A stretch of 64,000 nt of DNA from Gracilariopsis chorda (Eukaryota; Rhodophyta; Florideophyceae; Gracilariales; Gracilariaceae), in assembly GCA_003194525.1 (NCBI GenBank), contig NBIV01000064.1, forward strand, positions 275,464 through 339,463, in the 5' to 3' direction. The notes beneath the pieces are model-generated. The model was not told where the DNA came from, did not search any database, and saw only the letters and a list, made by a program, of their open reading frames with translations. Of this stretch, positions 1-53,200 are shown one piece after another (position 1 is the stretch's first letter; every line of letters starts with the position of its first letter). Made by a program: the position numbers and the translations under genes.

Positions 1-1
1 T

Positions 2-1450
2 GCCCCACTGGCGCGCATTTATACCCGCCAGGCGGGGAATGTTATCCCTTATCCCGCCGCTCCGTCTAAGGAGGCGGAGGAGAACACTCGTTTTCGAGGA
101 ACGATATCACCGTCGCAACGGGAAACACACCGTAACATACGGAATACTGACCGTGGAGCACGGAGTATGTCACGCGACACTAATCCCCCGTTCCCGGGCA
201 GTGCTGTGCAACAGGAACCAGACGTGCAGGCCCCGCAAAAGCGGCAAATACACCGTTTGTCACGGGAAAACGAGAAGCCTCACTCCAATACCGCAGCAGC
301 GGAAAGGCAATCGCCCGATGCCTCGAAGCCGCCGTTGGCGGAAGTCCCCGCGGAAGCGGTTCAATCAGGTCAATCAGACCCGCGCCCTGCGGAGAAGGGG
401 CACCCAGATACGCCGGCCTTACAGGGGAATACCCACACCCCTCTTGGGGAAAAAGGCGGTCAAGCTGCAGTCGAAGCTTTAAGCCCTGGCTTGCAAGCAC
501 CGGAAACGCCTCCCGTCGTTGACGGAATCAAAGCCCCCGCTACGGGGAATAATTTTCGCCAACCCCCGCATCGCTGCGGCGAAGAACCGAGAAACTCGGG
601 AATAACGCGCGCCATCGCACGCTCGAAACCGGTCCTACCGGACGCTGCTCCTCCTCATGGAGATGGTCCACTGCGCTCAGCGGCAATTCCCCTGAAAAGG
701 GTGTCATCGGCACCTGCCCAGAACCCCCCAAAGGGGAATTTTGACCAAAATACCGGTGTACCGGAGTTAGCCCCAGGCAACCTGTCAGTAGCCGGGGACA
801 CCACGGCGTCGCCGGAACGTATGGTGCAGAGCACTCGTGCGCCTGGCAGGGAGGCGGTTTGCCACCCAATCACCGTGTCGCACGGGACCCCCCAGGGGAT
901 TGTGGAAATGACGATACCGCAGGAGCGGTCATCTTCCCGCAAACTCGCGGTTCGTGAGCTCAACCGCGAAGGCGGAGCCCAAGTCCCCCGCCGACTGGCG
1001 GTTCGCCCGGCCTACCGTGAAGACGGGAACAACGACACCCCAATGGGGAATGACTTGCCGCGGAAAACCGTGACACCACACACCCTCTTGAGGGATATTT
1101 TCCCGCATGAGCAGCGGCCACTAGGACAGCGCACGGCAACGTCGGAGTTTTCGCCGAACACCCTGCTAAGGGACAATATACCGCACAGCGGGCAGCCCTC
1201 GCAAGGGAGTACAACCACCACCCGGCACGGCCGGCAGGTCTACGAACGAGAGTTCGTAGTAGACCGACTTGTCGGACACACCTGGAACCAGGATGGTATT
1301 CTACAATACCGCGTCCGCTGGTACGGGTATGACCCCAGTGGGGATACGTGGGAGCCAATCGAACACCTCCCACGGTCGCAGGTGCTGCGATACCACCGTC
1401 AAACGGGGACTGCAGCCCCAGCCACGCTGGTTAATGCCCAAGTTGGGTAA
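2..1450 (+). CDS. Ty3/gypsy-like polyprotein C-terminus with chromodomain (5' end outside window)
   Basis: The frame is open from the left window edge to a TAA at 1448-1450, so the first ATG at 167 is not a credible start; this is the C-terminal part of a longer protein. The last ~60 residues (nt ~1241-1414) form a chromodomain: a YEREFVVD start, a YRVRWYGY core and GDTWEP followed by a short helix. Chromodomains at this place are typical of chromoviral Ty3/gypsy integrases, where they bind modified histones and steer integration into heterochromatin. The preceding ~400 residues are rich in Pro, Gly, Arg and Ser with no recognised fold, and their composition is shaped by the hairpin array in the DNA. 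No RT, RNase H or integrase core is visible in the window. Alternative: a stand-alone chromodomain protein, but the polypurine tract 240 bp downstream favours a retrotransposon. Confidence 0.6.
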   Translation, partial: APLARIYTRQAGNVIPYPAAPSKEAEENTRFRGTISPSQRETHRNIRNTDRGARSMSRDTNPPFPGSAVQQEPDVQAPQKRQIHRLSRENEKPHSNTAAAERQSPDASKPPLAEVPAEAVQSGQSDPRPAEKGHPDTPALQGNTHTPLGEKGGQAAVEALSPGLQAPETPPVVDGIKAPATGNNFRQPPHRCGEEPRNSGITRAIARSKPVLPDAAPPHGDGPLRSAAIPLKRVSSAPAQNPPKGNFDQNTGVPELAPGNLSVAGDTTASPERMVQSTRAPGREAVCHPITVSHGTPQGIVEMTIPQERSSSRKLAVRELNREGGAQVPRRLAVRPAYREDGNNDTPMGNDLPRKTVTPHTLLRDIFPHEQRPLGQRTATSEFSPNTLLRDNIPHSGQPSQGSTTTTRHGRQVYEREFVVDRLVGHTWNQDGILQYRVRWYGYDPSGDTWEPIEHLPRSQVLRYHRQTGTAAPATLVNAQVG

Positions 1451-2502
1451 CGTTGCCGCGCGAGCGGAGAGCGAAAGGAAAGGATAACAAGGCAAGGTCC
1501 GTCGAAGACGGGGAACTCAAACGAGAATCACCGTTCTAAACGGGAAAGTTTATTTAAGGGAGCAGCTAGCCCCCCACAACACTATACTACAATAGCCGGC
1601 TATGCCAGGAAAGAAGAACTGGAGACGGCGTACGCGCTTTTATCACCCATTTTCGTCTGCGAACCCTCCGCGTCCGCGGTCGTTTTCCCGTCTTAGGGGG
1701 GGGATATGTAGTGCAACGCCCTCAGGGAGGGATTCTTGGTACTTGAACGCTTCCACGATATTATCGGTTGTGTAGTGTGTATATGAACTACGCCCCACTA
1801 TGGTGGATATGGACACGTGGGACACGGTTTTGGGTCAATTGGCGGTTGGCCACAGTAGTGGATGTTGCCACGGAATGTGGAGTATTTTAGTTAATTTTAT
1901 TTATTATTTTCACACCCATTTCTGGGAAGCTAGTACTTAGTGCGACGGCGCACTGCGGTCGCACCAGTAAACCTTCCCCAACAAGGGACCCCAACCTGGG
2001 GAATTGGCTCTGAGCTTTACCGCCTCCGCGTGTTCTCAACTCCTCCTTGGAGGGAAGCACCGTAGTGTACGGAAGTTCACCCCCCTTGCACATCTAAAGG
2101 AGACCCATCATTGGGAGTACTAATTGTTCCAATCATATTGGTGTTTCGCCCTGTATAGGGAGTCCTGTCCACCGGCATTGCCGTATCTGCTCGTCGCTCT
2201 CGCGACCCACTTCGTCCTTCCTCTTTCCCCTTTTTAGGGTAGCACCTCCCGCTCTCCGCGGCCCTCGTGTGCGCATCCGCTCACACACCCCCACTTACGT
2301 GGAAACATACCTCTACTGAGGATCACACCCCGCTCACGCGGATACCGATTCTTCGCCTTCACCTCCCTGCGCGAGTCGCGACAGGTGTCCCTGGTCTTAC
2401 AAACCGGCTTTGCCGTGACACCTCTGGGAGGGCTCTACCCAACTGGGTTCACCTCGTGAGAGGAAGATCCCGGACGTCTTTCGGTGTTTTTCCCCTTTGG
2501 GG
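24..2502. repeat. Dense array of short heterogeneous hairpins
   Basis: Perfect inverted repeats with 4-6 bp arms and 3-5 nt loops occur every few tens of bases. Examples: CCGT/ACGG 110-121, CCGTA/TACGG 130-142, CCGTG/CACGG 151-163, CCGC/GCGG 233-244, CCGCC/GGCGG 329-341, CCCC/GGGG 438-449, CCGTC/GACGG 513-525, CCCCG/CGGGG 535-547, CCGGT/ACCGG 629-641, CCGTG/CACGG 873-885, ACCGC/GCGGT 916-929, CCCC/GGGG 1038-1048, CCCT/AGGG 1161-1172 and 1196-1207, CCGTT/AACGG 1531-1543, CCTCC/GGAGG 2042-2053, CCGTA/TACGG 2060-2072, CCCT/AGGG 2149-2160, CGGC/GCCG 2405-2415, CCCC/GGGG 2492-2502. The left arm usually starts CC, and the right arm is usually followed by (G)A or AA. Stem sequence varies while pairing is kept. 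The array ignores the CDS end at 1450 and stops at the junction with C-1. Confidence 0.75.
1693..1706 (+). other. Candidate polypurine tract of the gypsy-like element
   Basis: A run of eight G residues (1696-1703) flanked by TTA and ATA lies 240 bp after the polyprotein stop and directly before a TG dinucleotide, the normal position of the plus-strand primer before a 3' LTR. The 1451-1692 interval before it holds no gene, only further hairpins. Confidence 0.45.
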
Positions 2503-2516
2503 CATTGCACCACACT
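1707..2516 (+). mobile_element. Probable truncated 3' LTR of the gypsy-like element
   Basis: Begins TGTAGTGC right after the polypurine tract and has no plausible coding region. No second copy is in the window, so the LTR assignment rests only on position. The right end is lost where homology to the family C LTR starts (~2517). It keeps the same hairpin style as the upstream coding part, tying both to one element. Confidence 0.35.
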
Positions 2517-2560
2517 TTGTTTCTTCCCTTTTGTTTTCATAACCCGCGTGCGTTGCAATA
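2517..2560 (+). repeat. 3' end of a family C LTR
   Basis: Matches the last ~44 bases of the complete C-4 LTR (27642-28374). The expected terminal CAACA reads CAATA here. Confidence 0.8.
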
Positions 2561-2574
2561 GGTTATGGGCCCAG
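2561..2574 (+). other. Primer binding site, initiator tRNA-Met half type (C-1)
   Basis: GGTTATGGGCCCAG directly follows the LTR end. It is the complement of CTGGGCCCATAACC, the 5' part of the initiator tRNA-Met anticodon arm, and equals the Drosophila copia primer site. Confidence 0.85.
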
Positions 2575-2827
2575 AGGGTTGACCTTTTGCAGACGTCGAG
2601 CTCTACTAATATCTCTTTGGATTCTACGAAGACTGGTTTTTTTTTCGCGCAGGTACGCGTTGCGTTGCGAGCGAGCAAATCTTGTGGAACTCGAGTGGCA
2701 GTGGTGAAAGTAGGCAAAGCGTTCAGAGACACCTTCTCTGGTAAGCCAACCTGCGCCTGTTCCGATCCCTGCTTATTTGCTTCAGCGCACAAGGGAGACC
2801 GCGCTATTTTCCGGCAAGCGACTAGAA

Positions 2828-3026
2828 GGGGTTAACTGGTGAAAGCTTATCGCGTCAGCTACTAGCCTCCCTTGGACGTCTCGTACGGATTGTAAAGCCC
2901 CTCGCTCTGAAGTGCGCAGAGCAGGATTGGTCGCAGAAAGCGCATCTCACCTGGAGAGAGTTACCAGGGACCAGAGGATTCGGACCTCTAGGGTAGCGGG
3001 GATAGTATCTCCTGCCAGTGCGCCCG
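2828..3026 (+). other. Conserved structured leader module, C-1 copy
   Basis: Part of the gene-free leader 2575-3347. Runs from GGGGTTAACTGGTGAA to the GTGCGCCCG box. Stem 1 is GCTCTG/CAGAGC at 2904-2922 with an AAGTGCG loop; the later stems match those of C-4. Confidence 0.6.
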
Positions 3027-3347
3027 TCTTAAGAAGTTTTATTTGTGTCCAGGCTCGTATCAGTACGTCCTGTGAGTATACTCCGGGCGTTGAGTACCCG
3101 AACTCTGCCTGTGATCGCGTACGAGACGCGTCTCGACAAGCGTAGTAGACTTGGTTACACAGTCTCCGCTGACGTTTTCGCTGTTGAGTGTTTGAGATTC
3201 CTTTCCGCTCCAGTTTTTCTGGTGCTTTGTGTAACAGAAGCCTTGACATCCCTCTTTCGGCTTCAATACATTGCGTGGATATCACTACATTTGGCATCTA
3301 CATAGTTGCTTTTGTTGCTTTTCTTTGGTTCTAGTCCCGTAGGAACC

Positions 3348-4408
3348 ATGTCCGACTCCGAAGTTGAAACGGAATCCACATCTGGAATGAAAATTCCTCG
3401 TTTCCATGGTAGGCGTGGTGATGATTATATGCTGTAGCGTCACCGTCTCCGTGCTGCATGCCGTATTAATGGTGTCTGGAATGTCGCGAATCCCTCTGGG
3501 GTTCAATCTACCACAGATATTTCAACTCAAGACACAACTACCGCAGGTAGTGGCACTGAAATAGCAACTCCCCGTATCATTGCGAAACGTGAAAAGGCTT
3601 GTGGTATCATCATCTGTGCTCTTTGTGATGCTCCATTACGCGTAGTCATGGACGTGGATGATGATCCTGCACGTATGTTGCAACTCTAGGATGGACGTTA
3701 TGCCTCCAATAGGACTGTATCTAGAATTGCAGGGCAGAAACGATTGTTCCGAATGTCGTACAGCGGTGAGAACATGTCCAGCTATGTGGATCAATACACG
3801 GCATTGTTCGCTCACTTAGACCGTATGGGCAAGGATGCTGCTATACCGGAGTCTCACAAGGCACCTATGCTTCTGGCCTCTATTGACCCCAACTGCTCTC
3901 TGGAGTCAACCGCAGCAGCACTTAGCACCAAGGAGATCTCCGAACTGACATGGGACTATGTGGCGACAACCCTGATTGATGAATATAATGCTCGTCAAAT
4001 GGGTTCAGGTAGTTCCGGTAGAGGTCTTAATCGCAAAAAGAACAGGAACAAGGGTGGTGGCCGTATAAGTGGACACAGCAGATCATCGATTGGTAATGAA
4101 AATGATGGTAACGCGTCAGATTCGACCACTGTTAACGACCCCACTGTTCGTGCGTATGCTGCTGGAAGCAGAAACGGGTACCACTGCACCTTCTGCGACC
4201 GTGATGGACATACTCAAGACCGATGTCACGTGAATCCGGACAATCCTGACAACCATCTCCCACAAGCAATCTTGAACCAGCTGAGGGTGAACGCAGTTGA
4301 GAAGCCAAAGCATTCTGGGAAGTCATGCAGTAGAGCGTCCAAAGTTGAAATTGCTGGTGTTGCTAGTGAGAAGTCTTCAGTGGTACCGCCAGCTATTAGT
4401 CACATCGA
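3348..4408 (+). pseudogene. Chimeric copia gag, C-type start and B-type remainder (C-1)
   Basis: Gag forms the virus-like particle and binds RNA through a CCHC knuckle. The ATG at 3348 starts the MSDSEVE N-terminus of families B and C. Two in-frame TAG codons (3435-3437, codon 30; 3687-3689, codon 114) replace TGG and TTG of C-4. From the start to ~3846 the DNA follows C-4 (29161 on); after ~3870 it follows B-1 (from ~26420) almost base for base, including the basic linker and a CCHC knuckle at ~4186-4230. The sequence ends just before the protease motif, at the inverted C-2 LTR. The apparent open frame continuing to 4676 is antisense LTR, not gag. A mosaic made by template switching between co-packaged RNAs is the simplest reading; gene conversion is possible. 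Confidence 0.8.
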
Positions 4409-5140
4409 TGTTGCAACGCACGCAGGTTATGAAAACAAAAGGGGAGAAACAACGGGAGGAAGAAGAGACCAGAAAATAAAACAAGGAAGGTTGTCGGCCT
4501 TAGTCGACCGGTTTACTAGACAGCAGGCAAGCCAATCTACATATACCCTACCGCACACACTTCACCGTCGTTGCACCAAGCGACGGCGGTGGTTGCACCA
4601 TTACACTACACGTTATTCGTGTGTGCAGGTGTACACGAAAAGCGCGCACAATCTAGAGGGTCAGAATTTCAAATAACTAAATCAATCAACGCCGCAAATC
4701 CATTGCCAGTCCCTTGATCTGGAACCAGCTCTAAAAAATCAACAATTTTCATCCTGGCACTCCAACCCCTCCGCGCAGCCCGCAAACGCACATTGTCCCA
4801 AATCACCCAATACAGCTCCCATTCGCATCTTCGGCATTGCAGCACAACCATCTACTGCGCGCACACTTGGACCAACCACATTGCTCCACTTGTGCATATC
4901 CGCAATCCAGTACCATACACTCCATAACACTTGTACGGTAGACAATGCATATAGCATTTTGCAGTAGCCAATCACATTGCCATTTCACGTTGGGTTTGAG
5001 CAGAGGCGCATATGCGCTTTTGGAGCGAGGGGCTCCAAAAGTGCCCATCGTCCCCTGAAGGTTTGGTTTTGGACCAAGCTGACAACTTCTGTGGGGGTTG
5101 GCCAGGCACTCGACCACTTGTAGAGTTCAACACTTCAACA
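4409..5140 (-). repeat. Complete family C 3' LTR (C-2)
   Basis: 732 bp with TGTTG...CAACA ends, alignable with the C-4 5' LTR. It contains the GCGCATATGCGC region (near 5012 on this strand), the promoter-proximal inverted repeat and a TATA-like element. Confidence 0.85.
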
Positions 5141-8100
5141 CTCCTCCTCGAGTTCCTGTCCAAGACCAAGCCGTTTGAGAATTGCATTAACACTCATACG
5201 TCCCAATGGCTTGGTGAGTAAATCGGCATCATTCAGCTCACTTGGGACGTATTGAACACTAATCACATTGTCTCTTATGAGATCTCGGATAAAGTGAACC
5301 TTTACATCAATGTGCTTAGCACGACTAGAAGGACACCTTTCACCACCAGCCCACTCCAATGCGCACTGGTTGTCAGAGTGTAGAAGGACCAAAGGTTTCA
5401 TGTCGAAGCCACATTCCCGTAGCACACGAGCAACCCATACCACTTCCTGTGCAGCCAAAGTCAGAGCATACTACTCCGCCTCGCCAGTTGATAGCGCAAC
5501 TGACGCTTGTTTTCGACCACCATACCAGCAGGTTGCGGACCCAAGTTTAACGATATACCCGGACATCCACTTCCGACTCGTAGTATCTACAGCGTAGTCA
5601 GAGTCCACAAAACCATGCAGATCTAGCGATCCAGGCCTGTAGCATAGCCCATGCTGTCGCGTTCCACACAGGTACCTGAGCACACGCTTCACAGCTTTGG
5701 GACACCAAGCGGTAGGAGCACTCTGAAAACGAGCCAGGATGAGAACTGGTGCAAGTATATCCAACCTAGTACGTAGTGCCAAGTACAGCAGAGACCCGAT
5801 CATCTGCTGGTACAACTGCACATCCATTGTTGATTTGTCCTCCTCCATTGCTAGAGATGTGAAGAAGCACTCCACCATAGGGCTAGGTACAGGCTTAGCG
5901 TTCTGGAGACCAAATCGTCGAAGTATACTTCCAATATACAGCGAATGTCCCAGCTTGACACCAAGGAGTTGTCCGGCTGTACCTATCTTCCATGACAGCT
6001 CCACGCCAAGGTACAGAGTGATTCGGTTCTCAATGCGGAGGTCATAGAGTGTTTTGAGCTCTTCCAAAACCGTAGTCCGTTGCTCCAGCGTTGGCGTGAA
6101 CACCAGAATGTCGTCCACGTATACGAGTATGTAGGCATACATGCCATCTCCAACCTTTCACTTCAATACGCACGGTGCGCTGGGTAGTTCCTCAAAACCC
6201 AACCTCTTCATGTCTGCTTTGAACTTGGTGTGCCATGCTAGATGAGCCTGTTTCAAACCGTACATAGCCTTGAGTAACTTATAGCACTTTGTGGTCAGAC
6301 CGGGAACACCACGCGGCGACATCACCCACACGTCTTCTTTAAGCTCACCGTTCAGAAATGCAGTCTTAACATCTACTTGAGCCACATACATCTGAAGACA
6401 AAGTGCGACGTACAGGAACATGCGGACCAGGCTAAATGGCACTACTGGCGCATATGTCTCTATGTAGTTCTGCCCGTATGTCTGGTGATTGCCACCAGCC
6501 ACAACCCTAGCCTTGAATCTATCAACCGATCCTTTGGCATCGCGCTTTACGTTTAAAATGACATGAGTAGGAAGAGACTGAGAGGCAGGTGATTCATCCT
6601 TCTCCCAAGTGTTCTTCTCCTCCAGAGATGTCATTTCTTCATCAATGGCATTCTTCCAAAGGCTCTGCTCAAGTGGTGTGGCAGACAGTGCTTCTCCCAG
6701 AGTAGGTTCATCACTGGTATTAATATGCATTTGTGACGTTGCACTACCGGCCATGTACCACCACTTAGCTGGTGCACGTCGTGTACGGCGAGGATAGCGT
6801 GGTTCTGGTTCAGATTCCGGTAAGACATCAGTGTCCGAAGTACGTTGACTAGCACTTGGGACATGCTCACCACAATTGTCTGGGTCCGAATCGTCACCGG
6901 AAGTATGCTCGCTATCATCTGGATGATCGGTACCGCTTTCAATGCTCTGTGCCGTTGGTATAGGAGTGGATTCAATATGTTCCTTATCACTCTCAATGTC
7001 GAATGGGGTGTCCTCAGAAACCATAATACCACTCTCAGTATCGATTTCAGAGTGATCTGTGCATTCATAAGTATCATCTGATGCACCTTCATCACTCATA
7101 ACATGTTCTAGAAATGGTGCCCCAGGGAACTTGGACTCGTCAAATGTCACATGCCGAGACTTTACAATGCGTGGAATCTCATCACTATCATGGACTAAAA
7201 CATCATACACACCATGCTCAAGAGTCTGCAAGCACACTCCCTCAAGTGCACCAGACTCGAACTTGGTATCCGGTTTCATCTTAAGCACGAACGCAGCACA
7301 CCCAAACACTTTGACATGCTTCAGAGATGGTTTTGAACCAGTCATCAAAAGGTAAGGGCTGCTTCCAGTTGCTGAGTGATAAACCCTATTGCGAACATGT
7401 ATGACGTGCTTTAATGCGTATGGCCACAAGCACTCTGGGAGACTTGCCTGTATGAGCAAAGCTCGAGCGGCTTCCTCCATATTACGATTGATGCGCTCGG
7501 CTATTGCATTGTGGTCCGGAGTATACGGAGGAGAGAAAGAAGTGTCTTGAAGGTTGTTGGTAGGGTTCAGCTGCAACGCAATACACTCTTCGGCATAATC
7601 CGAGTGCACTTTCGCAATGGCCAGTCCTCCAAGCTGCTGGAACTTGTGATCAACTGCATCGAATACAACAGCGATTTCACTTTTATTGGTCATGAAACCT
7701 AAGAGAGCATACCTTGAATGCTCGTCAAGAAAGGTAGAGGCATATTGAAACCTTTGTTGGAATGACGGTACAAGGGGTGCTAGTATGTCGGAGTGTACCA
7801 CCTCACCTACGGCTGATGCTCGGTCATATTTGCCAGGGAACGGAAGTTTATGCGCCTTACCAAGCATACACGGGCGGCATATCTCCTCCATTCCCGACAT
7901 CTTCGGCACCCCTTCGGCATGTTTGTAAACTGACTGGAGGTCGTGCGCATTGACGTGGGCAAGTCGCCGATGCCATAGATTAGCAATACTGGACTCCGAT
8001 GTCTTCATGCAATGATCTCCACTAGTTGGTGAAGAGGGTGGGGTTGGGTTGGTACCTTGCACTATCGGATCGGGTAAGGTGTACAACCCCGAGCGTCGAT

Positions 8101-8725
8101 CGCGATGGCCACTGCCGACTACAAACCCATTGTCCAAGGTGAGACGAACTTCACTTGAGCGAAAGAAAGATTCAATGCCCTTGTCCGCCAAGCATCCTAT
8201 GGACACCAAATTGTATTCCAGTTCTGAAACGAACAGGACATCAGTCAATCGTAGGTTTGCGTACTGAAATGGCAATACTATGTCACCCCGCTGCGTTGCA
8301 CATAGTTCAGTATTGTCGGCAAGCATGATGGTTCGAGTTTCTACGTTGTGCAAAGACTTGGGAATAAACGCAGACACCGAATGGAAAAAGTGTGATGTAG
8401 CACCACTATCGGCATAGGTGTCCATATCACAACTGTCAGGAAGTACGATGGAAGACTTTTCCAGTGCCATATTACATACCTCAATCTTTGATGAACTACC
8501 AGCCGGTTTATTGCAAAACTTGGACGCCCCAGATTTGCTCTTCGATTTGATGTTAAGCTTGTCCAGGATGCTTTTGGGTAAGTGATTATCTGGGTTATCG
8601 GGATTGACATGGCATCTGTCCTTTGTGTGACCATCACTATCACAGAATTCACAGTGATAAGTCCGGTTACTGGACACCACGTATGCTCTACCAGTTGTAC
8701 TTGGCCGATCATCAGAGTCACTTCC
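5135..8725 (-). pseudogene. Family C gag-pol, two nonsense mutations (C-2)
   Basis: The Ty1/copia polyprotein supplies nucleocapsid, protease, integrase, reverse transcriptase and RNase H. Seen here in order from 8725 leftward: CCHC knuckle (CEFCDSDGHTKDRC), protease DSGA near 8405, HHCC finger and integrase core (HSD, HSD, AERINR), RT with YVDD near 6125, RNase H with DSDYA. Two in-frame stops interrupt one otherwise continuous frame: TGA at 6155-6157 just before the YVDD block, and TAG at 5468-5470 replacing a Tyr in RNase H. The natural TGA (5135-5137) lies inside the 3' LTR. The first nine codons of the open frame beyond 8725 belong to the A-1 LTR. This is the longest family C pol in the window. 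Confidence 0.88.
5141..5155 (-). other. Polypurine tract of C-2, inside the pol coding end
   Basis: On the minus strand GAACTCGAGGAGGAG abuts the LTR and also encodes the final Glu residues of pol. Confidence 0.7.
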
Positions 8726-9504
8726 TGTCGGCCGTAGTACCTGTGCTCTCACTGAAAACCAAATGTTCCGGGGAGCATGGGCTGTTTTAGAGGGTAGCTC
8801 TGCAAAAGCGCATATGCGCGTGTGCGCGAACCCAACGTGAACCTGGCTTCTGATTGGCTACTGCAAATGTACATATGCAACGTGCTGCGTACAAGTGGTA
8901 TGGCATAACTGGATCGGTTGGACACACCCACGTGTCCAGCTACTACAGTGGTCACAGTGTACGTTGTGTGCAGGGGATACTGGTGAAGTGGTTGACAGCT
9001 GGTACAAGTGGTACAGCAGTGGTTGGTACGATGGTAAGGTGCGCATGCACTGTCAACAGGTTTACACATGCACGGGTATATTGATGAGGTGGGTGTTGTG
9101 TGCATTGCCACATGATGACACGGCACTAACACCACAGGTTACGTGCCGACTTACCGTGACGTGTTGACTTACCGTGATGTGTTGGCATGTGCTGGCGTGT
9201 GTTGGAGTCGTGAATTTGTGCCTTGTCATGGTCATGTGTATGCACGTAACTATTACGGAACGTTGGTGCGTTGGTGTGCGTTGATGTAATGAGGTTGTGC
9301 TGAGCTGGCTGTGTCATGTTAGATGATGATTAGTAGTATTGAGTGTCCCTGCTCAGTGGTTTAGGTTTTACTTGTAGTTGGTGGTCCCGCGCAATTCGAG
9401 TTTAGAGTGGTATATAAGATGTGTCTGAAGGACCTCCAAGTAAATCCAAGCTAGAGCTGGCGAACTTCCCTTCCATCCCCTCAACTTCCTTTCAACTTTC
9501 AACA
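8726..9504 (+). repeat. A-1 5' LTR
   Basis: Starts TGTCGGCCGTAG, two changes from the usual TGTTGGCAGTAG, and ends CAACA; length equals the A-2 LTR. It carries the LTR subtype with TTGACAGC near 8990. Confidence 0.88.
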
Positions 9505-10717: not shown

Positions 10718-13700
10718 ATGGATTCATTCGGTGGCATCAAGATTGAAAAGTTGGGCGAGAATAACTTCCATGTATGGAAGCAAAAGGTTGAGTTGCTGTT
10801 TGCACTCAAGGACCTCGATGACCATCTTGAATCAACCAGGCCTACGGACGATGACGAGTTGTCAGCATGGAAGCAGAAAGACGCCAAGGCCAGGGCTTTT
10901 ATTGGTCTCAGCATCAGTGATGAGCATTTGGACCACGTGAGGGATACCAAGAATGCTGGGGAAATGTGGAAAGCCATTTGCGATGTGTTCCAGCGTATAA
11001 CGCTGCTCAACCGAATCAATGCAAGACGTGCCTTATACACAGCCAAGATGCGAGATGATGAGAAAATGTTACACTTCATCAATCGTGTTCCTCATCTTGC
11101 ATCGGATCTGAAGAGCATGGACGTAGTGGTTGAGGAAGAAGACATCGCTATGGCAATCCTATGTGGGCTACCAGACCGTTTCGAACACCTTATTGTCGCT
11201 ATTGGCACCACGATTGGTGATTGCAAACTAGATTTAGAGTTTGTGAAGAGTCGTTTGCTGCAAGAGGAACAGCAAATGAACGATCGTGCCAAGGAGGAGT
11301 CCGGAAGTGACACGGCTTTGGTCGGTGCGCAGTCACGAAAGAAGTCCATGGTGTGCTACTACTGTGGTAAGAAGGGGCATATCCAGAGAAACTGTTTCAA
11401 GAGAAAACGTGACGAAGCTAGCAAAGAGCAGAGTGCTGCCGCAAACCCAGCTGTGCAGACCGATCTCGGCAACGAGAAACGAGGATGTAACAGTGACTCT
11501 GACTTTTTTTGTCTCATTGCGACAGGTTCTGTGGAAGAAAGTATCAGTGACTGGATCATTGACTCTGGTGCCACCGCCCATATGACGTATGACGAGTCCA
11601 TGTTTGACAGTTATAGCAAAAGAGAGTCTGCCGGTGTGAATATCGGCAATGACTCGAAGCTGGAGTCTCTTGGTCATGGCAGTGTCCACCTCGATCTCGC
11701 TGTTGAAGGGCGTAAGAGCAAGTGCCGGTTGGGTGAAGTAGTGCACGTACCGAATCTAAGGTATCATCTGCTGTCAGTATCTGCGATGTGTGACCTGGGT
11801 GCGCGAGTGGTGTTTGACAAAACCAAAGTATGTGTATACAAAGGCAACACCATGATCGCCCAGGGCCGTCGCATCAAAGGACTGTACTACCTATGTACCG
11901 CGATTGAAGTACCAGAAGACATGGACAACGCACTTGTGACTGACCTGTAACTATGGCATGCTCGAATGGCTCATGTGAATGTGGATGGTATCAAACATAT
12001 GGCTCGTAACGGTGTTGTGTCAGGGCTGAATGTGGACTTGAATCAATCGATGGATGTGTGTGACTCTTGTGTAGTGGGAAAATCTACACGTGCTCCAACT
12101 CCCAAGCAAGGGGGGGAAGGGCTTCGCACCCATTGGACCTAGTGCATTCGGACATTTGTGGTCCAATCCAAGTAGGTTCCTTGGGAGGTTCACGCTACTT
12201 CGTCACATTCATCGATGATCACTCCCGTTTTTGCTTCTTGTACATGCTCAAGACCAAGGATGAGGTGTTCCACGTGTTCGTGAAGTGGCTCAAGATGGTT
12301 CAAAATCAGAGTGACCGACATGTAAAAACCATCACCGCACCTGAGTCTGTGCTACATGCGTTACGCACAGACAATGCTGGTGAATATGTGTCAAAGAAGT
12401 TTTCACAAGAGCTTGAACGTCACGGTATTGAACATCAGCGAACGGTGCCTTACAATCCACATCAGAATGGTCTGGCCGAACGGTTCAACCGAACACTCAT
12501 GGACTTGGTGAGATCGATGCTGCATCACAAGAAACTGCCAAAGAGCTTCTGGGCTGAAGCATTGAACGTTGCGGTGTATGTGCGCAATCGAGTCACCTGC
12601 AAGGCCCTTCCGAGTGACGTGACACCGCTCGAGATGTGGAGTGGATATGAACCTGACTTGAGCAATCTGCGTGTGTTCGGTAGCCGGTGCTGGTACAAAG
12701 TGGTGGACCACAAGCTGAAGAAGCTGGAGCAACGTGCCGTGGAGGCGATCTTTATTGGGTACACATCTGGATCGAACGGTTATAAACTGTGGGATGCGCA
12801 AAAGAAGAAGGTGGTTGTGTCGAGAGATGTGAGGTTTGACGAATGTAGTAGTTCAGATCAAGGTACTGACCACGTTGATGAAGACGACTATGCTGAGATC
12901 GACATCTCGGACAAGCCGAAATCAAACATCACCTCCACCTCTACTAAACCCACCGATGCTGCCCAAGTTGAACCAGCTGCACCAGATACTCCACCAGAAG
13001 AAGCTTCAGGCAGTGGCCACGATGAGCCCACAGCTGAGACAGAAGTTGAGCCAGACGTACCAGATCCTCCACCACTTCGGAGATCCACTCGTGAGCGTAG
13101 AGTGCCTACCTCGTGGTGGCGCGGCACTGCCCTACTCACTGCCAGTGCTGACGTCCCATCCTCATACTCCGATGCGGTGTCACGTCCTGATTCAAAAGCG
13201 TGGACCAAGGCCATGAACAGTGAGTACGAGTCTCTGATGGAGCATGACACATGGGAGTTAGTGCCAAGGCCAGCTGACAGCAACGTGATATCATCCAAGT
13301 GGGTATTTGTGCAAAAATATGAGGCTGGCGACAACGATGAACCGACAGTGAGGTACAAGGCTCGTGTGGTGGCTCAAGGGTTTCTGCAGATCGAAGGTGT
13401 AGACTTCTCCGAGATGTATGCACCAGTGGTCAAATCCACATCCATTAGAATGATTCTGTCCATTGTAGCAGTGCAGGACTATCATCTGCACCAGATGGAT
13501 GTGAAGACTGCATTCTCGAATGGCGACCTGGAAGAGACTGTGTACATGGAGCAGCCGGACGGATTCATCAAACCTGGGAACGAGGACTTGGTATGCCTTC
13601 TCAAGAAAGCCATCTATGGGCTACGACAGGCATCAAGGCAGTGGTTTGCAAAGATGTACTTGTTCCTCGTTGGTTGGATGGGTCTGAAGCCAAACGTCGC

Positions 13701-14742
13701 AGACGAGTGCGTCTACACCGGAGAGGTACTGGGAGCGCTTGTGATCATTGCTCTTTATGTGGACGACTTGCTCATTGCGAGTCCAAGTATGGAGACAATG
13801 AATCGCGTAAAGCGTGAACTGTCAAAACGTTTTCAGATGAAGGATCTCAGTGAAGCGCGCATGGTATTTGGGTTCGAGATCCATCGTGATCGATCCAAAA
13901 GACAGCTGTACCTGACACAGTCTGCATACACGCGTAAGGTCTTAGAACGTTTTGGCATGTTGCAGTGCAAACCAATGGACACTCCCATGGACTCCGGTGC
14001 TGACCTCACTAAGGTAGAAGAGCCTCTGACGAACATCCCGTATCGCCAGGTGATCGGTTGTCTGATGTATCTCTCTGTTGGCACTCGACCGGACATCTCG
14101 TTTGCAGTGTCCAAGCTAGCCAAGTATGTCGAGAAACTTGGAGAGACTCATTGGAAAGCGGTCAAGCGTGTTCTGCGTTACCTCAATCGCACTCGCTCCC
14201 TCGGACTTACTTATGGCACCACGACTGATACTCAGCTGTATGGATACGTAGACTCTGACTGGGCAGGTGATACATCCAACCGCAAGTCCACCAGTGGGTA
14301 TGTGTTCATGATGTGCGGTGCTCCTGTGTCTTGGAGCTCGCGCCAACAGGAAGTAGTTGCATTGTCTAGCGCTGAGGCTGAGTATGTGAGTCTGTGCAGT
14401 GGGACGAAGGAAGCGATCTGGCTGAGACGACTGTGGAGTGGCATTGGCAACGCAAGTGGACTACACGTGGATGAGTCAGTGACGCTAATGGTTGAGCCCA
14501 CAACTGTGTACGTGGACAACCAAGGTTGCATCGACCTTGCTCGAAATGGAGTTGTGAACAAGCGTACTAAGCACATTGATATTCGCTTTCAATTCACCAG
14601 AGAGGCTCTACGCGACAAAGCCGTCCAGTTGCAGTACTGTTCCACGGAAGACATGGTTGCCGATATGCTGACGAAAGCGCTTGGTCGAGTTAAGCTGGCA
14701 AGGTTCCGCGGTGACTGTGGCTTGCTCCCCTTAGACCTTTGA
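10718..14742 (+). pseudogene. Family A gag-pol with stop and frameshift (A-1)
   Basis: Aligns along its length with the 1341-codon A-2 polyprotein. A TAA at 11948-11950 replaces a TCA just before the integrase HHCC finger. A one-base deletion about two bases after the seven-G run (12110-12116) shifts the frame before the first integrase aspartate, so the rest continues to 14742 in another frame. The nucleocapsid knuckle, protease DSGA, DD35E residues, RT YVDD and RNase H motifs remain recognisable. It shares with A-2 the unusual RT residues described there (SEMYAPVVKS and AFSNG), so A-1 and A-2 form one sublineage. Confidence 0.9.
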
Positions 14743-44289: not shown

Positions 44290-47200
44290 ATGGATTCATT
44301 CGGTGGCATCAAGATTGAAAAGTTGGGCGAGGATAACTTCCATGTATGGAAGCAAAAGGTTGAGTTGCTGCTTGCACTCAAGGACCTCGATGACCATCTT
44401 GAATCAACCAGGCCTACGGACGATGACGAGTTGTCAGCATGGAAGAAGAAAGACTCCAAGGCCAGGGCTGTTATTGGTCTCAGCATCAGTGATGAGCATT
44501 TGGACCATGTGAGGGATACCGAGAATGCTGCGGAAATGTGGAAAGCCATTTGCGATGTGTTCCAGCGTAAAACGCTGCTCAACCGAATCAATGCAAGACG
44601 TGCCTTCTACACAGCCAAGATGCGAGATGATGAGAAAATGTTACACTTCATCAATCGTGTTCGTCAGTTCGCATCGGATCTGAAGAGCATGGACGTAGTG
44701 GTTGAGGAGGAAGACATCGCTATGGCAATCCTATGTGGGCTACCAGACCGCTTCGAACACCTCATTGTCGCTATTGACACCACGATTGGTGATCGTAAAC
44801 TCGATTTAGAGTTTGTGAAGAGTCGTTTGCTGCAAGAGGAACAGCGAATGAACGATCGTGCCAAGGAGGAGTCCGGAAGTGACACGGCTTTGGTCGGTGC
44901 GCAGTCACGAAAGAAGTCCATGGTGTGCTACTACTGTGGTAAGAAGGGGCATATCCAGAGAAACTGTTTCAAGAGACAACGTGACGAAGCTAGCAAAGAG
45001 CAGAGTGCTGCCGCAAACCCAGCTGTGCAGACCAATCTCGGCAACGAGAAACGAGGATGTGACAGTGACTCTGACTTTGTTTGTCTCATTGCGACAGGTT
45101 CTGTGGAAGAAAGTATCAGTGACTGGATCATTGACTCTGGTGCCACCGCCCATATGACGTATGACGAGTCCATGTTTGACAGTTATAGCAAAAGAGAGTC
45201 TGCCGGTGTGAGTATCGGCAATGACTCGAAGCTGGAGTCTCTTGGTCATGGCAGTGTCCACCTCGATCTCGCTGTGGAAGGGCGTAAGATCAAGTGCCGG
45301 TTGGGTGAAGTAGTGCACGTACCGAATCTAAGGTATCATCTGCTGTCAGTATCTGCGATGTGTGACCTGGGTGCGCGAGTGGTGTTTGACAAAACCAAAG
45401 TATGTGTATACAAAGGCAACACCATGATCGCCCAGGGCCGTCGCATCAAAGGACTGTACTACCTATGTACCGCGATTGAAGTACCAGAAGACATGGACAA
45501 CGCACTTGTGACTGACCTGTCACTATGGCATGCTCGAATGGCTCATGTGAATGTGGATGGTATCAAACATATGGCTCGTAACGGTGTTGTGTCAGGGCTG
45601 AATGTGGACTTGAATCAATCGATGGATGTGTGTGACTCTTGTGTAGTGGGAAAATCTACACGTGCTCCAACTCCCAAGCAAGGGGGGAACGGGCTTTGCA
45701 CCCATTGGACCTAGTGCATTCGGACATTTGTGGTCCAATCCAAGTAGGTTCCTTGGGAGGTTCACGCTACTTCGTCACATTCATCGATGATCACTCCCGT
45801 TTTTGCTTCTTGTACATGCTCAAGACCAAGGATGAGGTGTTCCACGTGTTCGTGAAGTGGCTCAAGATGGTTCAAAATCAGAGTGACCGACATGTGAAAA
45901 CCATCACCGCACGTGAGTCTGTGCTACATGCGTTACGCACAGACAATGCTGGTGAATATGTGTCAAAGAAGTTTTCACAAGAGCTTGAACGTCACGGTAT
46001 TGAACATCAGCGAACGGTGCCTTACAATCCACATCAGAATGGTCTGGCCGAACGGTTCAACCGAACACTCATGGACTTGGTGAGATCGATGCTGCATCAC
46101 AAGAAACTGCCAAAGAGCTTCTGGGCTGAAGCATTGAACGTTGCGGTGTATGTGCGCAATCGAGTCACCTGCAAGGCCCTTCCGAGTGACGTGACACCGC
46201 TCGAGATGTGGAGTGGATATGAACCTGACTTGAGCAATCTGCGTGTGTTCGGTAGCCGGTGCTGGTACAAAGTGGTGGACCACAAGCTGAAGAAGCTGGA
46301 GCAACGTGCCGTGGAGGCGATCTTTATTGGGTACACATCTGGATCGAACGGTTATAAACTGTGGGATGCGCAAAAGAAGAAGGTGGTTGTGTCGAGAGAT
46401 GTGAGGTTTGACGAATGTAGTGGTTCAGATCAAGGTACTGACCACGTTGATGATGACGACTATGCTGAGATCGACATCTCGGACAAGCCGAAATCAAACA
46501 TCACCTCCACCTCTACTAAACCCACCGATGCTGCCCAAGTTGAACCAGCTGCACCAGATACTCCACCAGAAGAAGCTTCAGGCAGTGGCCACGATGAGCC
46601 CACAGCTGAGACAGAAGTTGAGCCAGACGTACCAGATCCTCCACCACTTCGGAGATCCACTCGTGAGCGTAGAGCGCCTACCTCGTGGTGGCGCGGCACT
46701 GCCCTACTCACTGCCAGTGATGAGGTCCCATCCTCATACTCCGATGCGGTGTCACGTCCTGACTCAAAAGCGTGGACCAAGGCCATGAACAGTGAGTACG
46801 AGTCTCTGATGGAGCATGACACATGGGAGTTAGTGCCAAGGCCAGCTGACAGCAACGTGATATCATCCAAGTGGGTATTTGTGCAAAAATATGAGGCTGG
46901 CGACAACGATGAACCGACAGTGAGGTACAAGGCTCGTGTGGTGGCTCGAGGGTTTCTGCAGATCGAAGGTGTAGACTTCTCCGAGACGTATGCACCAGTG
47001 GTCAAATTCACATCCATTAGAATGATTCTGTCCATTGTAGCAGTGCAGGACTATCATCTGCACCAGATGGATGTGAAGACTGCATTCTTGAATGGCGACC
47101 TGGAAGAGACTGTGTACATGGAGCAGCCGGACGGATTCATCAAACCTGGGAACGAGGACTTGGTATGCCTTCTCAAGAAAGCCATCTATGGGCTACGACA

Positions 47201-48314
47201 GGCATCAAGGCAGTGGTTTGCAAAGATGTACTTGTTCCTCGTGGGTTGGATGGGTCTGAAGCCAAACGTCGCAGACGAGTGCGTCTACACCGCAGAGGTA
47301 CTGGGAGCGCTTGTGATCATTGCTCTTTATGTGGACGACTTGCTCATTGCGAGTCCAAGTAGGGAGACAATGAATCGCGTAAAGCGTGAACTGTCAAAAC
47401 GTTTTCAGATGAAGGATCTCAGTGAAGCGCGCATGGTATTTGGGTTCGAGATCCATCGTGATCGATCCAAAAGACAGCTGTACCTGACACAGTCTGCATA
47501 CAGGCGTAAGGTCTTAGAACGTTTTGGCATGTTGCAGTGCAAACCAATGGACACTCCCATGGACTCCGGTGCTGACCTCACTAAGGTAGAAAAGCCTCTG
47601 ACGAACATCCCGTATCGCCAGGTGATCGGTTGTCTGATGTATCTCTCTGTTGGCACTCGACCGGACATCTCGTTTGCAGTGTCCAAGCTAGCCAAGTATG
47701 TCGAGAAACCTGGAGAGACTCATTGGAAAGCGGTCAAGCGTGTTCTGCGTTACCTCTATGGCACTCGCTCCCTCGGACTTACTTATGGCACCACGACTGA
47801 TACTCAGCTGTATGGATACGTAGACTCTGACTGGGCAGGTGATACATCCAACCGCAAGTCCACCAGTGGGTATGTGTTCATGATGTGCGGTGCTCCTGTG
47901 TCTTGGAGCTCGCGCCAACAGGAAGTAGTTGCATTGTCTAGCGCTGAGGCTGAGTATGTGAGTCTGTGCAGTGGGACGAAGGAAGCGATCTGGCTGAGAC
48001 GACTGTGGAGTGGCATTGGCAACGCAAGTGGACTACACGTGGATGAGTCAGTGACGCTAATGGTTGACCCCACAACTGTGTACGTGGACCATCAGGGTTG
48101 CATCGACCTTGCTCGAAATGGAGTTGTGAACAAGCGTACTAAGCACATTGATATTCGCTTTCACTTCACCAGAAAGGCTCGACGCGACAAAGCCGTCCAG
48201 TTGCAGTACTGTTCCACGGAAGACATGGTTGCCGATATGCTGACGAAAGCGCTCGCTCGAGTTAAGCTGGCAAGGTTCCGCGGTGACTGTGGCTTGCTCC
48301 CCTTAGACCTTTGA
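44290..48314 (+). pseudogene. Family A gag-pol with G-run frameshift (A-4)
   Basis: Gag, CCHC knuckle, protease and HHCC finger are in one frame to 45714. The G run at 45682-45687 has six G instead of the seven of A-2 and A-3, so integrase core, RT and RNase H lie in the -1 frame (from 45639, in-frame from the G run, to 48314). Otherwise no stop. RT reads SETYAPVVKF and AFLNGDL with YVDD. The break falls between the integrase finger and catalytic core. Either a simple mutation or, less likely, a site of ribosomal slippage, since the same six-G form occurs in A-5. Confidence 0.9.
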
Positions 48315-50213: not shown

Positions 50214-53200
50214 TCAAAGGTCTAAGGGGAGCAAGCCACAGTCACCGCGGAACCTTGCCAGCTTAACTCGACCGAGCGCTTTCGTCAGCATATCGGCAAC
50301 CATGTCTTCCGTGGAGCAGTACTGCAACTGGACGGCTTTGTCGCGTAGAGCCTCTCTGGTGAAGTGAAAGCGAATATCAATGTGCTTAGTACGCTTGTTC
50401 ACAACTCCATTTCGAGCAAGGTCGATGCAACCTTGGTTGTCCACGTACACAGTTGTGGGCTCAACCATTAGCGTCACTGACTCATCCACGTGTAGTCCAC
50501 TTGCGTTGCCAATGCCACTCCACAGTCGTCTCAGCCAGATCGCTTCCTTCGTCCCACTGCACAGACTCACATACTCAGCCTCAGCGCTAGACAATGCAAC
50601 TACTTCCTGTTGGCGCGAGCTCCAAGACACAGGAGCACCGCACATCATGAACACATACCCACTGGTGGACTTGCGGTTGGATGTATCACCTGCCCAGTCA
50701 GAGTCTACGTATCCATACAGCTGAGTATCAGTCGTGGTGCCATAAGTAAGTCCGAAGGAGCGAGTGCCATTGAGGTAACGCAGAACACGCTTGACCGCTT
50801 TCCAATGAGTCTCTCCAGGTTTCTCGACATACTTGGCTAGCTTGGACACTGCAAACGAGATGTCCGGTCGAGTGCCAACAGAGAGATACATCAGACAACC
50901 GATCACCTGGCGATACGGGAGGTTCGTCAGAGGCTCTTCTACCTTAGTGAGGTCAGCACCGGAGTCCATGGGAGTGTCCATTGGTTTGCACTGCAACATG
51001 CCAAAACGTTCTAAGACCTTACGCGTGTATGCAGACTGTGTCAGGTACAGCTGTCTTTTGGATCGATCACGATGGATCTCGAACCCAAGTACCATGCGCG
51101 CTTCACTGAGATCCTTCATCTGAAAACGTTTTGACAGTTCACGCTTTACGCGATTCATTGTCTCCATACTTGGACTCGCAATGAGCAAGTCGTCCACATA
51201 AAGAGCAATGATCACAAGCGCTCCCAGTACCTCTCCGGTGTAGACGCACTCGTCTGCGACGTTTGGCTTCAGACCCATCCAACCAACGAGGAACAAGTAC
51301 ATCTTTGCAAACCACTGCCTTGATGCCTGTCGTAGCCCATAGATGGCTTTCTTGAGAAGGCATACCAAGTCCTCGTTCCCAGGTTTGATGAATCCGTCCG
51401 GCTGCTCCATGTACACAGTCTCTTCCAGGTCGCCATTCAAGAATGCAGTCTTCACATCCATCTGGTGCAGATGATAGTCCTGCACTGCTACAATGGACAG
51501 AATCATTCTAATGGATGTGAATTTGACCACTGGTGCATACGTCTCGGAGAAGTCTACACCTTCGATCTGCAGAAACCCTCGAGCCACCACACGAGCCTTG
51601 TACCTCACTGTCGGTTCATCGTTGTCGCCAGCCTCATATTTTTGCACAAATACCCACTTGGATGATATCACGTTGCTGTCAGCTGGCCTTGGCACTAACT
51701 CCCATGTGTCATGCTCCATCAGAGACTCGTACTCACTGTTCATGGCCTTGGTCCACGCTTTTGAATCAGGACGTGACACCGCATCGGAGTATGAGGATGG
51801 GACGTCATCACTGGCAGTGAGTAGGGCAGTGCCGCGCCACCACGAGGTAGGCGCTCTACGCTCACGAGTGGATCTCCGAAGTGGTGGTGGATCTGGTACA
51901 TCTGGCTCAACTTCTGTCTCAGCTGTGGGCTCATCGTGGCCACTGCCTGAAGCTTCTTCTGGTGGAGTATCTGGTGCAGCGGGTTCAACTTGGGCAGCAT
52001 CGGTGGGTTTAGTAGAGGTGGAGGTGATGTTTGATTTCGGCTTGTCCGAGATGTCGATCTCAGCATAGTCGTCATCATCAACGTGGTCAGTACCTTGATC
52101 TGAACCACTACATTCGTCAAACCTCACATCTCTCGACACAACCACCTTCTTCTTTTGCGCATCCCACAGTTTATAACCGTTCGATCCAGATGTGTACCCA
52201 ATAAAGATCGCCTCCACGGCACGTTGCTCCAGCTTCTTCAGCTTGTGGTCCACCACTTTGTACCAGCACCGGCTACCGAACACACGCAGATTGCTCAAGT
52301 CAGGTTCATATCCACTCCACATCTCGAGTGGTGTCACGTCACTCGGAAGGGCCTTGCAGGTGACTCGATTGCGCACATACACTGCAACGTTCAATGCTTC
52401 AGCCCAGAAGCTCTTTGGCAGTTTCTTGTGATGCAGCATCGATCTCACCAAGTCCATGAGTGTTCGGTTGAACCGTTCGGCCAGACCATTCTGATGTGGA
52501 TTGTAAGGCACCGTTCGCTGATGTTCAATACCGTGACGTTCAAGCTCTTGTGAAAACTTCTTTGACACATATTCACCAGCATTGTCTGTGCGTAACGCAT
52601 GTAGCACAGACTCACGTGCGGTGATGGTTTTCACATGTCGGTCACTCTGATTTTGAACCATCTTGAGCCACTTCACGAACACGTGGAACACCTCATCCTT
52701 GGTCTTGAGCATGTACAAGAAGCAAAAACGGGAGTGATCATCGATGAATGTGACGAAGTAGCGTGAACCTCCCAAGGAACCTACTTGGATTGGACCACAA
52801 ATGTCCGAATGCACTAGGTCCAATGGGTGCAAAGCCCGTTCCCCCCTTGCTTGGGAGTTGGAGCACGTGTAGATTTTCCCACTACACAAGAGTCACACAC
52901 ATCCATCGATTGATTCAAGTCCACATTCAGCCCTGACACAACACCGTTACGAGCCATATGTTTGATACCATCCACATTCACATGAGCCATTCGAGCATGC
53001 CATAGTGACAGGTCAGTCACAAGTGCGTTGTCCATGTCTTCTGGTACTTCAATCGCGGTACATAGGTAGTACAGTCCTTTGATGCGACGGCCCTGGGCGA
53101 TCATGGTGTTGCCTTTGTATACACATACTTTGGTTTTGTCAAACACCACTCGCGCACCCAGGTCACACATCGCAGATACTGACAGCAGATGATACCTTAA

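What the first reader, a model, noticed from the sequence alone, without database searches (positions are those of the whole stretch)
24..2502. Thousands of bases patterned by tiny, sequence-variable hairpins
More than twenty perfect stems (4-6 bp, 3-5 nt loops) were located by eye, often every 20-40 nt, with different stem bases but similar layout: CC-rich left arm, GG-rich right arm, then (G)A. They occur in protein-coding sequence, after the stop, through the polypurine tract and in the probable LTR, and stop at the junction with the next element. Pairing is kept while sequence changes, so selection or a generating mechanism acts on structure. Possible roles: genome packaging, RNA protection, replication pausing, or spread of a hairpin-forming micro-repeat. 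I know of no described retroelement with such a coat of hairpins.
Basis: seen in the sequence. Interest (0 to 1): 0.82.

Follow-up and report, generated by a model that had tools for sequence, protein, structure and literature searches.

The report
Retrotransposon coated in selected mini-hairpins
A jumping element in what looks like a red alga carries some 280 tiny, sequence-variable hairpins from end to end, kept by selection even inside its enzyme genes, an organisation I know from no other retrotransposon.

Summary
Window 24-2502 holds 101 perfect hairpins (arm >=4, loop 3-5) against 30.8+-5.9 in dinucleotide shuffles. The stretch is the 3' end of a 9.73-kb Ty3/gypsy element that is coated throughout (380 vs 113+-11); first and last hairpins lie 12 nt inside its ends. 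The excess survives codon-preserving shuffles of gag, pol and RT-integrase (z 11.5-17.7). Geometry is strict: loops of 3-4 nt, Watson-Crick pairs, CC/GG stem base. Two related families, with third codon positions only 39-41% identical, are coated too, with 71-82% of hairpins at different places. Two other gypsy lineages and the window's copia elements are not. Private mutations of copies ignore the hairpins, which speaks against a mutational generator and for selection during replication. RNA phages MS2 and Qbeta show a weaker version of the signature. Compensatory changes between copies exist but are modest. My best mechanism, inferred and unproven, is a distributed Gag-binding array on the genomic RNA; roles in the cDNA or as a shield against duplexes remain open.

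The parts
1..2502 (+). Part of the hairpin coat that lies in the window: 80 non-overlapping hairpins (arm >=4, loop 3-4) in 24-2502
1..1450 (+). 3' end of the pol ORF (starts at L009 5889), integrase C-terminal tail, coated
   Evidence: ORFs; 62 hairpins vs 22-25 in codon-preserving shuffles
1253..1378 (+). Chromodomain
   Evidence: PF00385, E 2.1e-10, residues 418-459 of the ORF from 2
1451..1694 (+). Non-coding stretch between pol stop and polypurine tract, also with hairpins
1695..1706 (+). Polypurine tract (AGGGGGGGGATA) next to the 3' LTR
   Evidence: read; region shown
1707..2514 (+). 3' LTR, 808 nt, about 99% identical to the 5' LTR (L009 2784-3591), coated (33 hairpins vs 8.2)
   Evidence: start corrected by one base
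2515..2519 (+). Target-site duplication CTTTG, matching the 5 bases before the 5' LTR; end of the coat

Best explanation
One clade of Ty3/gypsy retrotransposons in a probable red-algal genome keeps its sequence, LTR to LTR and through its protein domains, written as an array of mini-hairpins. Shown by sequence: perfect 4-5 bp Watson-Crick stems, loops of 3-4 nt, CC/GG stem bases (shifted by one pair in family C), about 29 per kb in family A with linkers of 5-9 nt preferred, kept by selection on replicating lineages, and absent from other retroelements of the same host that I tested. Inferred: the hairpins fold locally on the sense genomic RNA as it is made and are recognised, by shape plus the closing C-G pairs, by the element's own Gag, a CCHC knuckle protein. 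One hairpin plus linker (about 20 nt) would be the unit of RNA binding for packaging, as sequence-variable stem-loops contact coat protein in MS2. Because recognition is degenerate, single hairpins can be lost and gained as long as the array persists, which would explain the turnover.
For: Coat spans the element to 12 nt from both ends, evenly, 10-17 per 500 nt. Excess over the dinucleotide- and codon-preserving shuffle: gag 89 vs 34, pol 214 vs 83, RT-IN 100 vs 38. Families A, B, C coated with third positions 39-41% identical; 22 and 20 of A's 112 hairpins at the same place in B and C, offset controls about 6. Clade-specific: gypsy D 26 vs 28.5, E 35 vs 28.1, two copia stretches at chance, so not host-wide. 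Stem base differs in family C. Loop sizes in A 162/41.6 and 165/40.2, then 53/31.0, 42/29.0 and less. Linkers of 5-9 nt 70 vs 46.3+-6.1. Private mutations random with respect to hairpins; between-lineage ones destroy fewer than expected in 5 of 6 comparisons. MS2 and Qbeta show loop 3-4 excess, 66 vs 27.5 and 75 vs 33.1. PMC5007439 (passages): 59 stem-loops, 23-44 of them packaging signals, a wide variety of sequences bound. Gag A has one CCHC knuckle; PMC4974528 (passages): Ty3 packaging needs NC, including its zinc finger.
Against: No binding, probing or expression data. No common loop motif. Equilibrium RNA folding forms A's hairpins with mean probability 0.44 (chance hairpins 0.30), and in B and C hardly better or not better than chance hairpins; DNA parameters give 0.61 for A (chance 0.46). 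G-U pairs are not in excess in A (84 vs 81.7) and not clearly in C (39 vs 32.2, z 1.2); only B shows a G-U excess (47 vs 31.5, z 2.5) without an A-C excess. Linker preference evident in A only. At 4-fold sites stems are not clearly slower in L022-L012 and L022-L037. L022->L012 destroys about as many hairpins as expected (86 vs 90.8). Only one Gag was read.
Confidence: 0.42

Rival explanations
1. Shield: the hairpins keep the RNA from forming long duplexes with antisense or small RNAs, and so protect it from host silencing or decay. Any folded short stem will do; no protein reads them.
For: With 36% of the element inside hairpins and a longest gap of 97 nt, few long stretches are free of a stem. 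Turnover of positions is expected. MS2 and Qbeta, which must keep strands apart, share the signature.
Against: Copia and two gypsy lineages in the same cells lack it, though they would face the same silencing. The CC..GG polarity (62 vs 4.1, against 5 vs 4.3 for GG..CC) and the drop beyond 4-nt loops are not explained by stability alone (inference).
Confidence: 0.2
2. cDNA-level role: the hairpins act in single-stranded DNA during reverse transcription, for instance to organise or protect cDNA in the particle or to limit strand switching.
For: Strict Watson-Crick pairs without G-U excess in A; DNA parameters fold them more often than RNA parameters (0.61 vs 0.44 in A, 0.52 vs 0.34 in B, 0.49 vs 0.35 in C).
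Against: The ssDNA phage phiX174 shows no such excess (one yardstick). Family B has a G-U excess on the sense strand only. Chance hairpins also fold more often with DNA parameters (0.46 vs 0.30 in A).
Confidence: 0.17
3. Mutational generator: template switching of the element's reverse transcriptase turns imperfect stems into perfect ones, so the coat is a by-product without function.
For: Stems are perfect and loops tight, as expected of snap-back copying (inference). Some copies show clustered private changes.
Against: Of 233 private substitutions in 27 copies, 12 create and 53 destroy hairpins, against 13.9 and 61.6 expected. CC..GG polarity and uncoated gypsy lineages are unexplained.
Confidence: 0.07
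4. Chance, base composition or codon usage.
For: The element is GC-rich in part (0.51-0.63 in 500-nt bins inside it).
Against: Dinucleotide and codon-preserving shuffles.
Confidence: 0.01

Closest known systems
Ty3/gypsy (Metaviridae) LTR retrotransposons with an integrase chromodomain
   Same: LTRs, target duplication, PPT, RT - RNase H - integrase order, chromodomain, Gag with one CCHC knuckle
   Different: The hairpin coat; two other gypsy lineages of the same genome lack it
ssRNA phages MS2 and Qbeta (Fiersviridae)
   Same: Excess of perfect short hairpins with 3-4 nt loops; MS2 stem-loops of varied sequence contact coat protein (PMC5007439, passages)
   Different: Excess of loop 3-4 hairpins 2.4 and 2.3 times chance, against 4.0 in family A (2.6 in B, 2.9 in C); MS2 and Qbeta also exceed chance in mismatched 6-bp stems (G-U 27 vs 10.3 and 28 vs 13.8), and MS2 in loops of 5-6 nt; CC base rule not tested there; different replication
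Dispersed packaging signals (PMC6281560, abstract and outline read)
   Same: Many degenerate hairpins spread over a packaged genome
   Different: [quoted passage not shown] here size and closing pairs are shared, and binding is unknown
Genome-scale ordered RNA structure of RNA viruses (definition recalled; only search listings seen)
   Same: Structure in coding and non-coding sequence alike
   Different: That is a folding-energy excess; here twelve 400-nt tiles give z -0.8 to -5.1, and the signal is one fixed hairpin type

Membership tests
Ty3/gypsy LTR retrotransposon | Two LTRs (TG..CA), target duplication, polypurine tract | tested here: met
   LTRs about 99% identical (801 of 809 columns, one column an extra base of my cut), TSD CTTTG, PPT
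Ty3/gypsy LTR retrotransposon | Order RT - RNase H - integrase in pol | tested here: met
   RVT_1 466-624, RT_RNaseH 718-819, H2C2 953-1010, rve 1027-1124
Ty3/gypsy LTR retrotransposon | tRNA primer binding site after the 5' LTR | tested here: inconclusive
   TGG.. 3 nt after the LTR has the form of a PBS; no tRNA was matched
Chromovirus | Chromodomain at the end of pol | tested here: met
   PF00385 E 2.1e-10
Chromovirus | Position in an RT tree | not tested
   no reference RTs of named clades were at hand
Dispersed packaging signals | Many hairpins along the genome beyond chance | tested here: met
Dispersed packaging signals | Shared motif recognised by the coat protein | tested here: inconclusive
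   CC/GG base shared, loops without consensus
Dispersed packaging signals | Hairpins bind the capsid protein | not testable with these tools
   needs binding or crosslinking
Genome-scale ordered RNA structure | Folding energy consistently below shuffled controls | tested here: inconclusive
   12 tiles, z -0.8 to -5.1, all negative but several weak
Palindromic dispersed repeats (REP, MITE and the like) | Copies share a sequence | tested here: not met
   stems vary beyond the base, loops have no consensus
Rfam RNA families | Match at gathering score | tested here: not met
   0 matches in L009 2784-10000 and in window 1-2600

The most novel reading that the evidence does not exclude
A retrotransposon clade has evolved a second, genome-wide code: some 280 interchangeable 12-nt hairpins at roughly 20-nt steps, read by its own Gag as repeating nucleoprotein units, superimposed on its genes through synonymous codons, with a family-specific closing pair that could keep the particles of related families apart.
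Probability: 0.3. Interest if true: 0.93.

Novelty: new variant of a known kind. Interest (0 to 1): 0.86.

Why it matters
It shows selection for one fixed nucleic-acid shape over a whole 9.7-kb genome, conserved enzyme domains included, in a cellular retrotransposon. In family A the count excess is larger than in MS2 and Qbeta under the same measure. It makes the debated question of dispersed packaging signals testable in retroelements, since the same host offers coated and uncoated gypsy lineages as cases and controls. It also means that synonymous sites in such elements are not neutral. My ten library searches (open-licence PMC papers, of which only the top rows were listed where many matched) showed no paper whose title or abstract start describes such a coat in a retroelement; subscription literature was not searched.

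Tried and rejected
Chance and composition: rejected by dinucleotide shuffles and by two codon-preserving shuffles, one also keeping dinucleotides. Host-wide cause: rejected by two copia stretches, by the rest of the window (stems >=5 bp: no 1-kb bin beyond 2000 exceeds z 1.6), by gypsy D and E, and by one host-gene locus, L010, 8.2 vs 11.2 per kb. Known RNA family: none. Special tetraloops: GNRA 8 and TNCG 2 of 103. Relatives in IMG/VR: 24 pattern matches, none confirmed (genome contigs was not scanned). Naming the host: one weak Phycobilisome-domain hit whose ORF had no PDB match; seven phycobilisome-linker hits on seven contigs, one at position 547 kb, suggest nuclear linker genes and hence a red alga (that nuclear linkers mark red algae is recalled). 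The cryptophyte family PF02972 did not ring, but no control rang either. The species was not identified. Gag matched no Pfam family at E <= 0.001 and only weak, unrelated ones up to E 10. The comparison is not used; one search replaced it.

Results against my reading: no pairing-keeping double change in L012->L022 (0 of 9), no gain over slid partners in L037->L012 and little in L037->L022; L022->L012 destroys hairpins about as often as expected, 86 vs 90.8; no G-U excess in A; RNA folding of hairpins in B and C near that of chance hairpins; no linker preference evident in B and C, for which no random-placement control was run; at 4-fold sites a clear stem effect only in L022-L011 (stem 1/235, spacer 15/441). 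The two 500-nt bins centred about 1.0 and 0.5 kb before the 5' LTR bin are somewhat high as well (11 vs 5.1 and 9 vs 5.2), unexplained.
Full report
What was claimed.

The count. With arms of at least 4 bp and loops of 3-5 nt there are 101 hairpins in 24-2502; 100 dinucleotide shuffles give 30.8+-5.9 with a maximum of 47. Two control stretches give 21 vs 27.9 and 29 vs 29.1. The excess lies mostly in stems that begin with CC (62 against 4.1); GG..CC stems are at chance (5 against 4.3). Stems of 6 bp or more are not in excess (4 vs 3.7).

The true extent. The window is G000:C64:275464-339463 of a 91-Mb assembly in 1081 contigs. The 10 kb upstream (L009) hold the rest of a Ty3/gypsy element: 5' LTR L009 2784-3591, gag ORF 3697-5871, and a pol ORF from 5889 that runs into the window to 1450. 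Pol has the DTGA protease motif, RT, RNase H, H2C2, integrase and a chromodomain. The 3' LTR is window 1707-2514, and the insertion is flanked by the duplication CTTTG (my script took the LTR start one base early, corrected). All 19 bins of 500 nt that lie wholly inside the element have 14-24 hairpins against 4.7-6.7 expected, z 3.9-9.8. Downstream bins are at chance; upstream, two bins are somewhat high (11 vs 5.1, z 3.1; 9 vs 5.2, z 1.7) and the bin holding the 5' LTR start has 12 vs 4.1. Whole element: 380 against 113+-11. Without overlap and with loops 3-4 there are 281, 28.9 per kb, the first and last 12 nt from the element's ends, against 8.6 and 5.7 per kb in the flanks. Eight loci were examined at their LTR end: downstream of it, L001-L003 are at or below chance (7 vs 10.5, 13 vs 13.7, 9 vs 12.9), L007 and L008 somewhat above (16 vs 12.4, 19 vs 12.1), and L004-L006 coated (39, 48, 39 vs 12-14). 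In L005 the flank begins with the bases that follow a 5' LTR; L004 and L006 were not resolved.

Not a by-product of coding. Shuffling synonymous codons, without or with keeping dinucleotides, leaves gag at 30 or 34 (observed 89), pol at 74 or 83 (214), RT to integrase at 34 or 38 (100) and the pol tail at 22 or 25 (62), z 7.5-17.7. The hairpins are thus superimposed on codons of conserved enzymes. The LTR is coated as well (33 against 8.2).

Geometry. Among CC..GG sites of 12 and 13 nt, the third pair is Watson-Crick in 110 of 169 and 87 of 171, and, given that, the fourth in 88 of 110 and 72 of 87; shuffles give about 19 and 5. G-U at the fourth pair: 2 and 2. Loops of 3 and 4 nt are about four times expectation (162/41.6, 165/40.2), 5 nt 53/31.0, 6 nt 42/29.0, falling to chance by 9; in family C loops 3 and 4 stand out likewise. 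The base 3' of 201 CC stems is A in 52%. Linkers of 5-9 nt are preferred (70 against 46.3+-6.1) and those of 4 nt or less avoided (30 against 51.6+-5.8) in family A; centre distances peak at 18-20 nt. Loops show no consensus.

Other elements of the genome. A Pfam RVT_1 search scored 150 of 3380 candidates and gave 30 loci, L041-L070; all 30 have 2.3-2.8 times the expected hairpins. The 30 loci L011-L040 of the RT-protein search (99 scored of 4946 candidates) have 3.1-3.6 times. These are the best-scoring matches, not a census. L041-L070 include two further families, B (L042, L043) and C (L062), 64-69% identical to A or each other in long pol ORFs (proteins or DNA of 9 of the 30 loci were compared). 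In the codon alignment of A, B and C, third positions are 39-41% identical, yet each exceeds the codon- and dinucleotide-preserving shuffle (214 vs 83, 103 vs 51, 99 vs 48). Of A's 112 hairpins in the shared part, 22 sit at the same place in B (75 hairpins) and 20 in C (80), against about 6 for offset controls. A minority is shared, most have turned over. In C the CC lies one pair further in, with T or A outside it. Two more distant gypsy lineages with long open pol frames, D (L074, 32% identity) and E (L075, 30%), have no coat: 26 vs 28.5 and 35 vs 28.1 (z 1.3); L076 proved to be family C (69 vs 24.4). Two copia stretches of the window have none. The trait belongs to one clade, not to the host.

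Selection or mutation. Stems change less than spacers: L011-L022 7/1192 vs 61/2596, L022-L012 83/1248 vs 237/2506, L022-L037 138/1180 vs 411/2415. Double changes that keep pairing exceed slid partners in L022->L012 and L011->L012 (11 of 18 each), L022->L037 (15 of 31) and L012->L037 (11 of 27), slightly in L037->L022 (14 of 34 vs 10-13 of 30-41), and not in L037->L012 (11 of 31) or L012->L022 (0 of 9); L011->L022 has none. The comparisons are not independent. At four-fold sites only L022-L011 shows a clear stem effect (1/235 vs 15/441). Of 233 private substitutions in 27 copies, 53 destroy and 12 create hairpins, against 61.6 and 13.9 for the same changes at random sites. Differences between lineages destroy fewer than expected in 5 of 6 comparisons (for example 107 vs 157.7 in L012->L037), but not in L022->L012 (86 vs 90.8). 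So mutation does not favour hairpins, and the filter acts while the element replicates. Multi-base template-switch events are not excluded by this test; clustered private changes exist.

RNA or DNA. Under the same count MS2 and Qbeta have loop 3-4 excesses of 66 vs 27.5 and 75 vs 33.1 (2.4 and 2.3 times; A 4.0, B 2.6, C 2.9), and phiX174 none. This favours RNA, on three yardsticks. Family B has a G-U excess (z 2.5) without an A-C excess, as sense RNA would; A and C do not. In 400-nt tiles at 20 C, hairpins form with mean probability 0.44 in A (chance hairpins 0.30), 0.34 in B (0.24) and 0.35 in C (0.42) with RNA parameters, and 0.61, 0.52 and 0.49 with DNA parameters (0.46, 0.24, 0.50); other temperatures agree in kind. 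Each hairpin is stable alone (mean -5.1 kcal/mol), so they may form first during transcription or be held by protein (inference). The question stays open.

Mechanism. The coat spans the packaged genome, is clade-specific with a stem base that differs in one family, has a fixed size, and tolerates turnover of single hairpins. A distributed binding array for the element's own Gag fits these facts best. In MS2, 59 stem-loops were observed, between 23 and 44 of them packaging signals, with a wide variety of sequences (PMC5007439, passages); the dispersed-signal model is set out in PMC6281560 (abstract and outline). In Ty3 the NC domain, basic region and zinc finger, is needed for packaging, and in 2016 the structure of Ty3 RNA was uncharacterised (PMC4974528, passages). 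Family A's Gag has one CCHC knuckle. This step is inference: 0.42 for the whole mechanism, above 0.9 for the structural part, a selected and clade-specific hairpin coat.

Novelty. Ten searches of the open PMC library, of which I saw the listed rows, showed no description of such a coat in a retroelement. The element is of a known kind; its organisation is, as far as I could search, not described.

Noticed in passing
L009 737-2104 (+) and window 5135-8752 (-): By eye, very similar copia pol sequences lie in opposite orientation on the two sides of the gypsy insertion (ORF lists).
   Followed up: no
window 12067-14742 (+), 45639-48314 (+), 50214-52889 (-): Three ORFs of exactly 891 aa; the first is copia pol, the others were not searched and may be recent copies.
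   Followed up: no
L042 (family B): Stems with one internal G-U but not A-C are in excess (47 vs 31.5 and 31 vs 32.5; in 6-bp stems 21 vs 10.0 and 9 vs 11.9), which would point to sense RNA.
   Followed up: partly
L004 and L006, around 3014-3129: The LTR end is found only with 3 mismatches about 115 nt further on, and the following sequence is coated (39 vs about 12); a variant LTR or a nested element.
   Followed up: no
L024, alignment columns 3441-3451 and 3535-3541: Tight clusters of private substitutions in one copy, possibly recombination or template switching.
   Followed up: no
L009 about 1501-2500, just upstream of the 5' LTR: Two 500-nt bins outside the element are somewhat rich in hairpins (11 vs 5.1 and 9 vs 5.2) without CC stems (0 and 1).
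   Followed up: no
L010 1495-2373 (-): ORF with a weak Phycobilisome-domain match (E 9.8e-5) and no PDB relative.
   Followed up: partly
L009 3697-5871: Open 724-aa Gag with a Lys/Arg- and Ser-rich stretch and a CCHC knuckle matches no Pfam family at E <= 0.001.
   Followed up: partly
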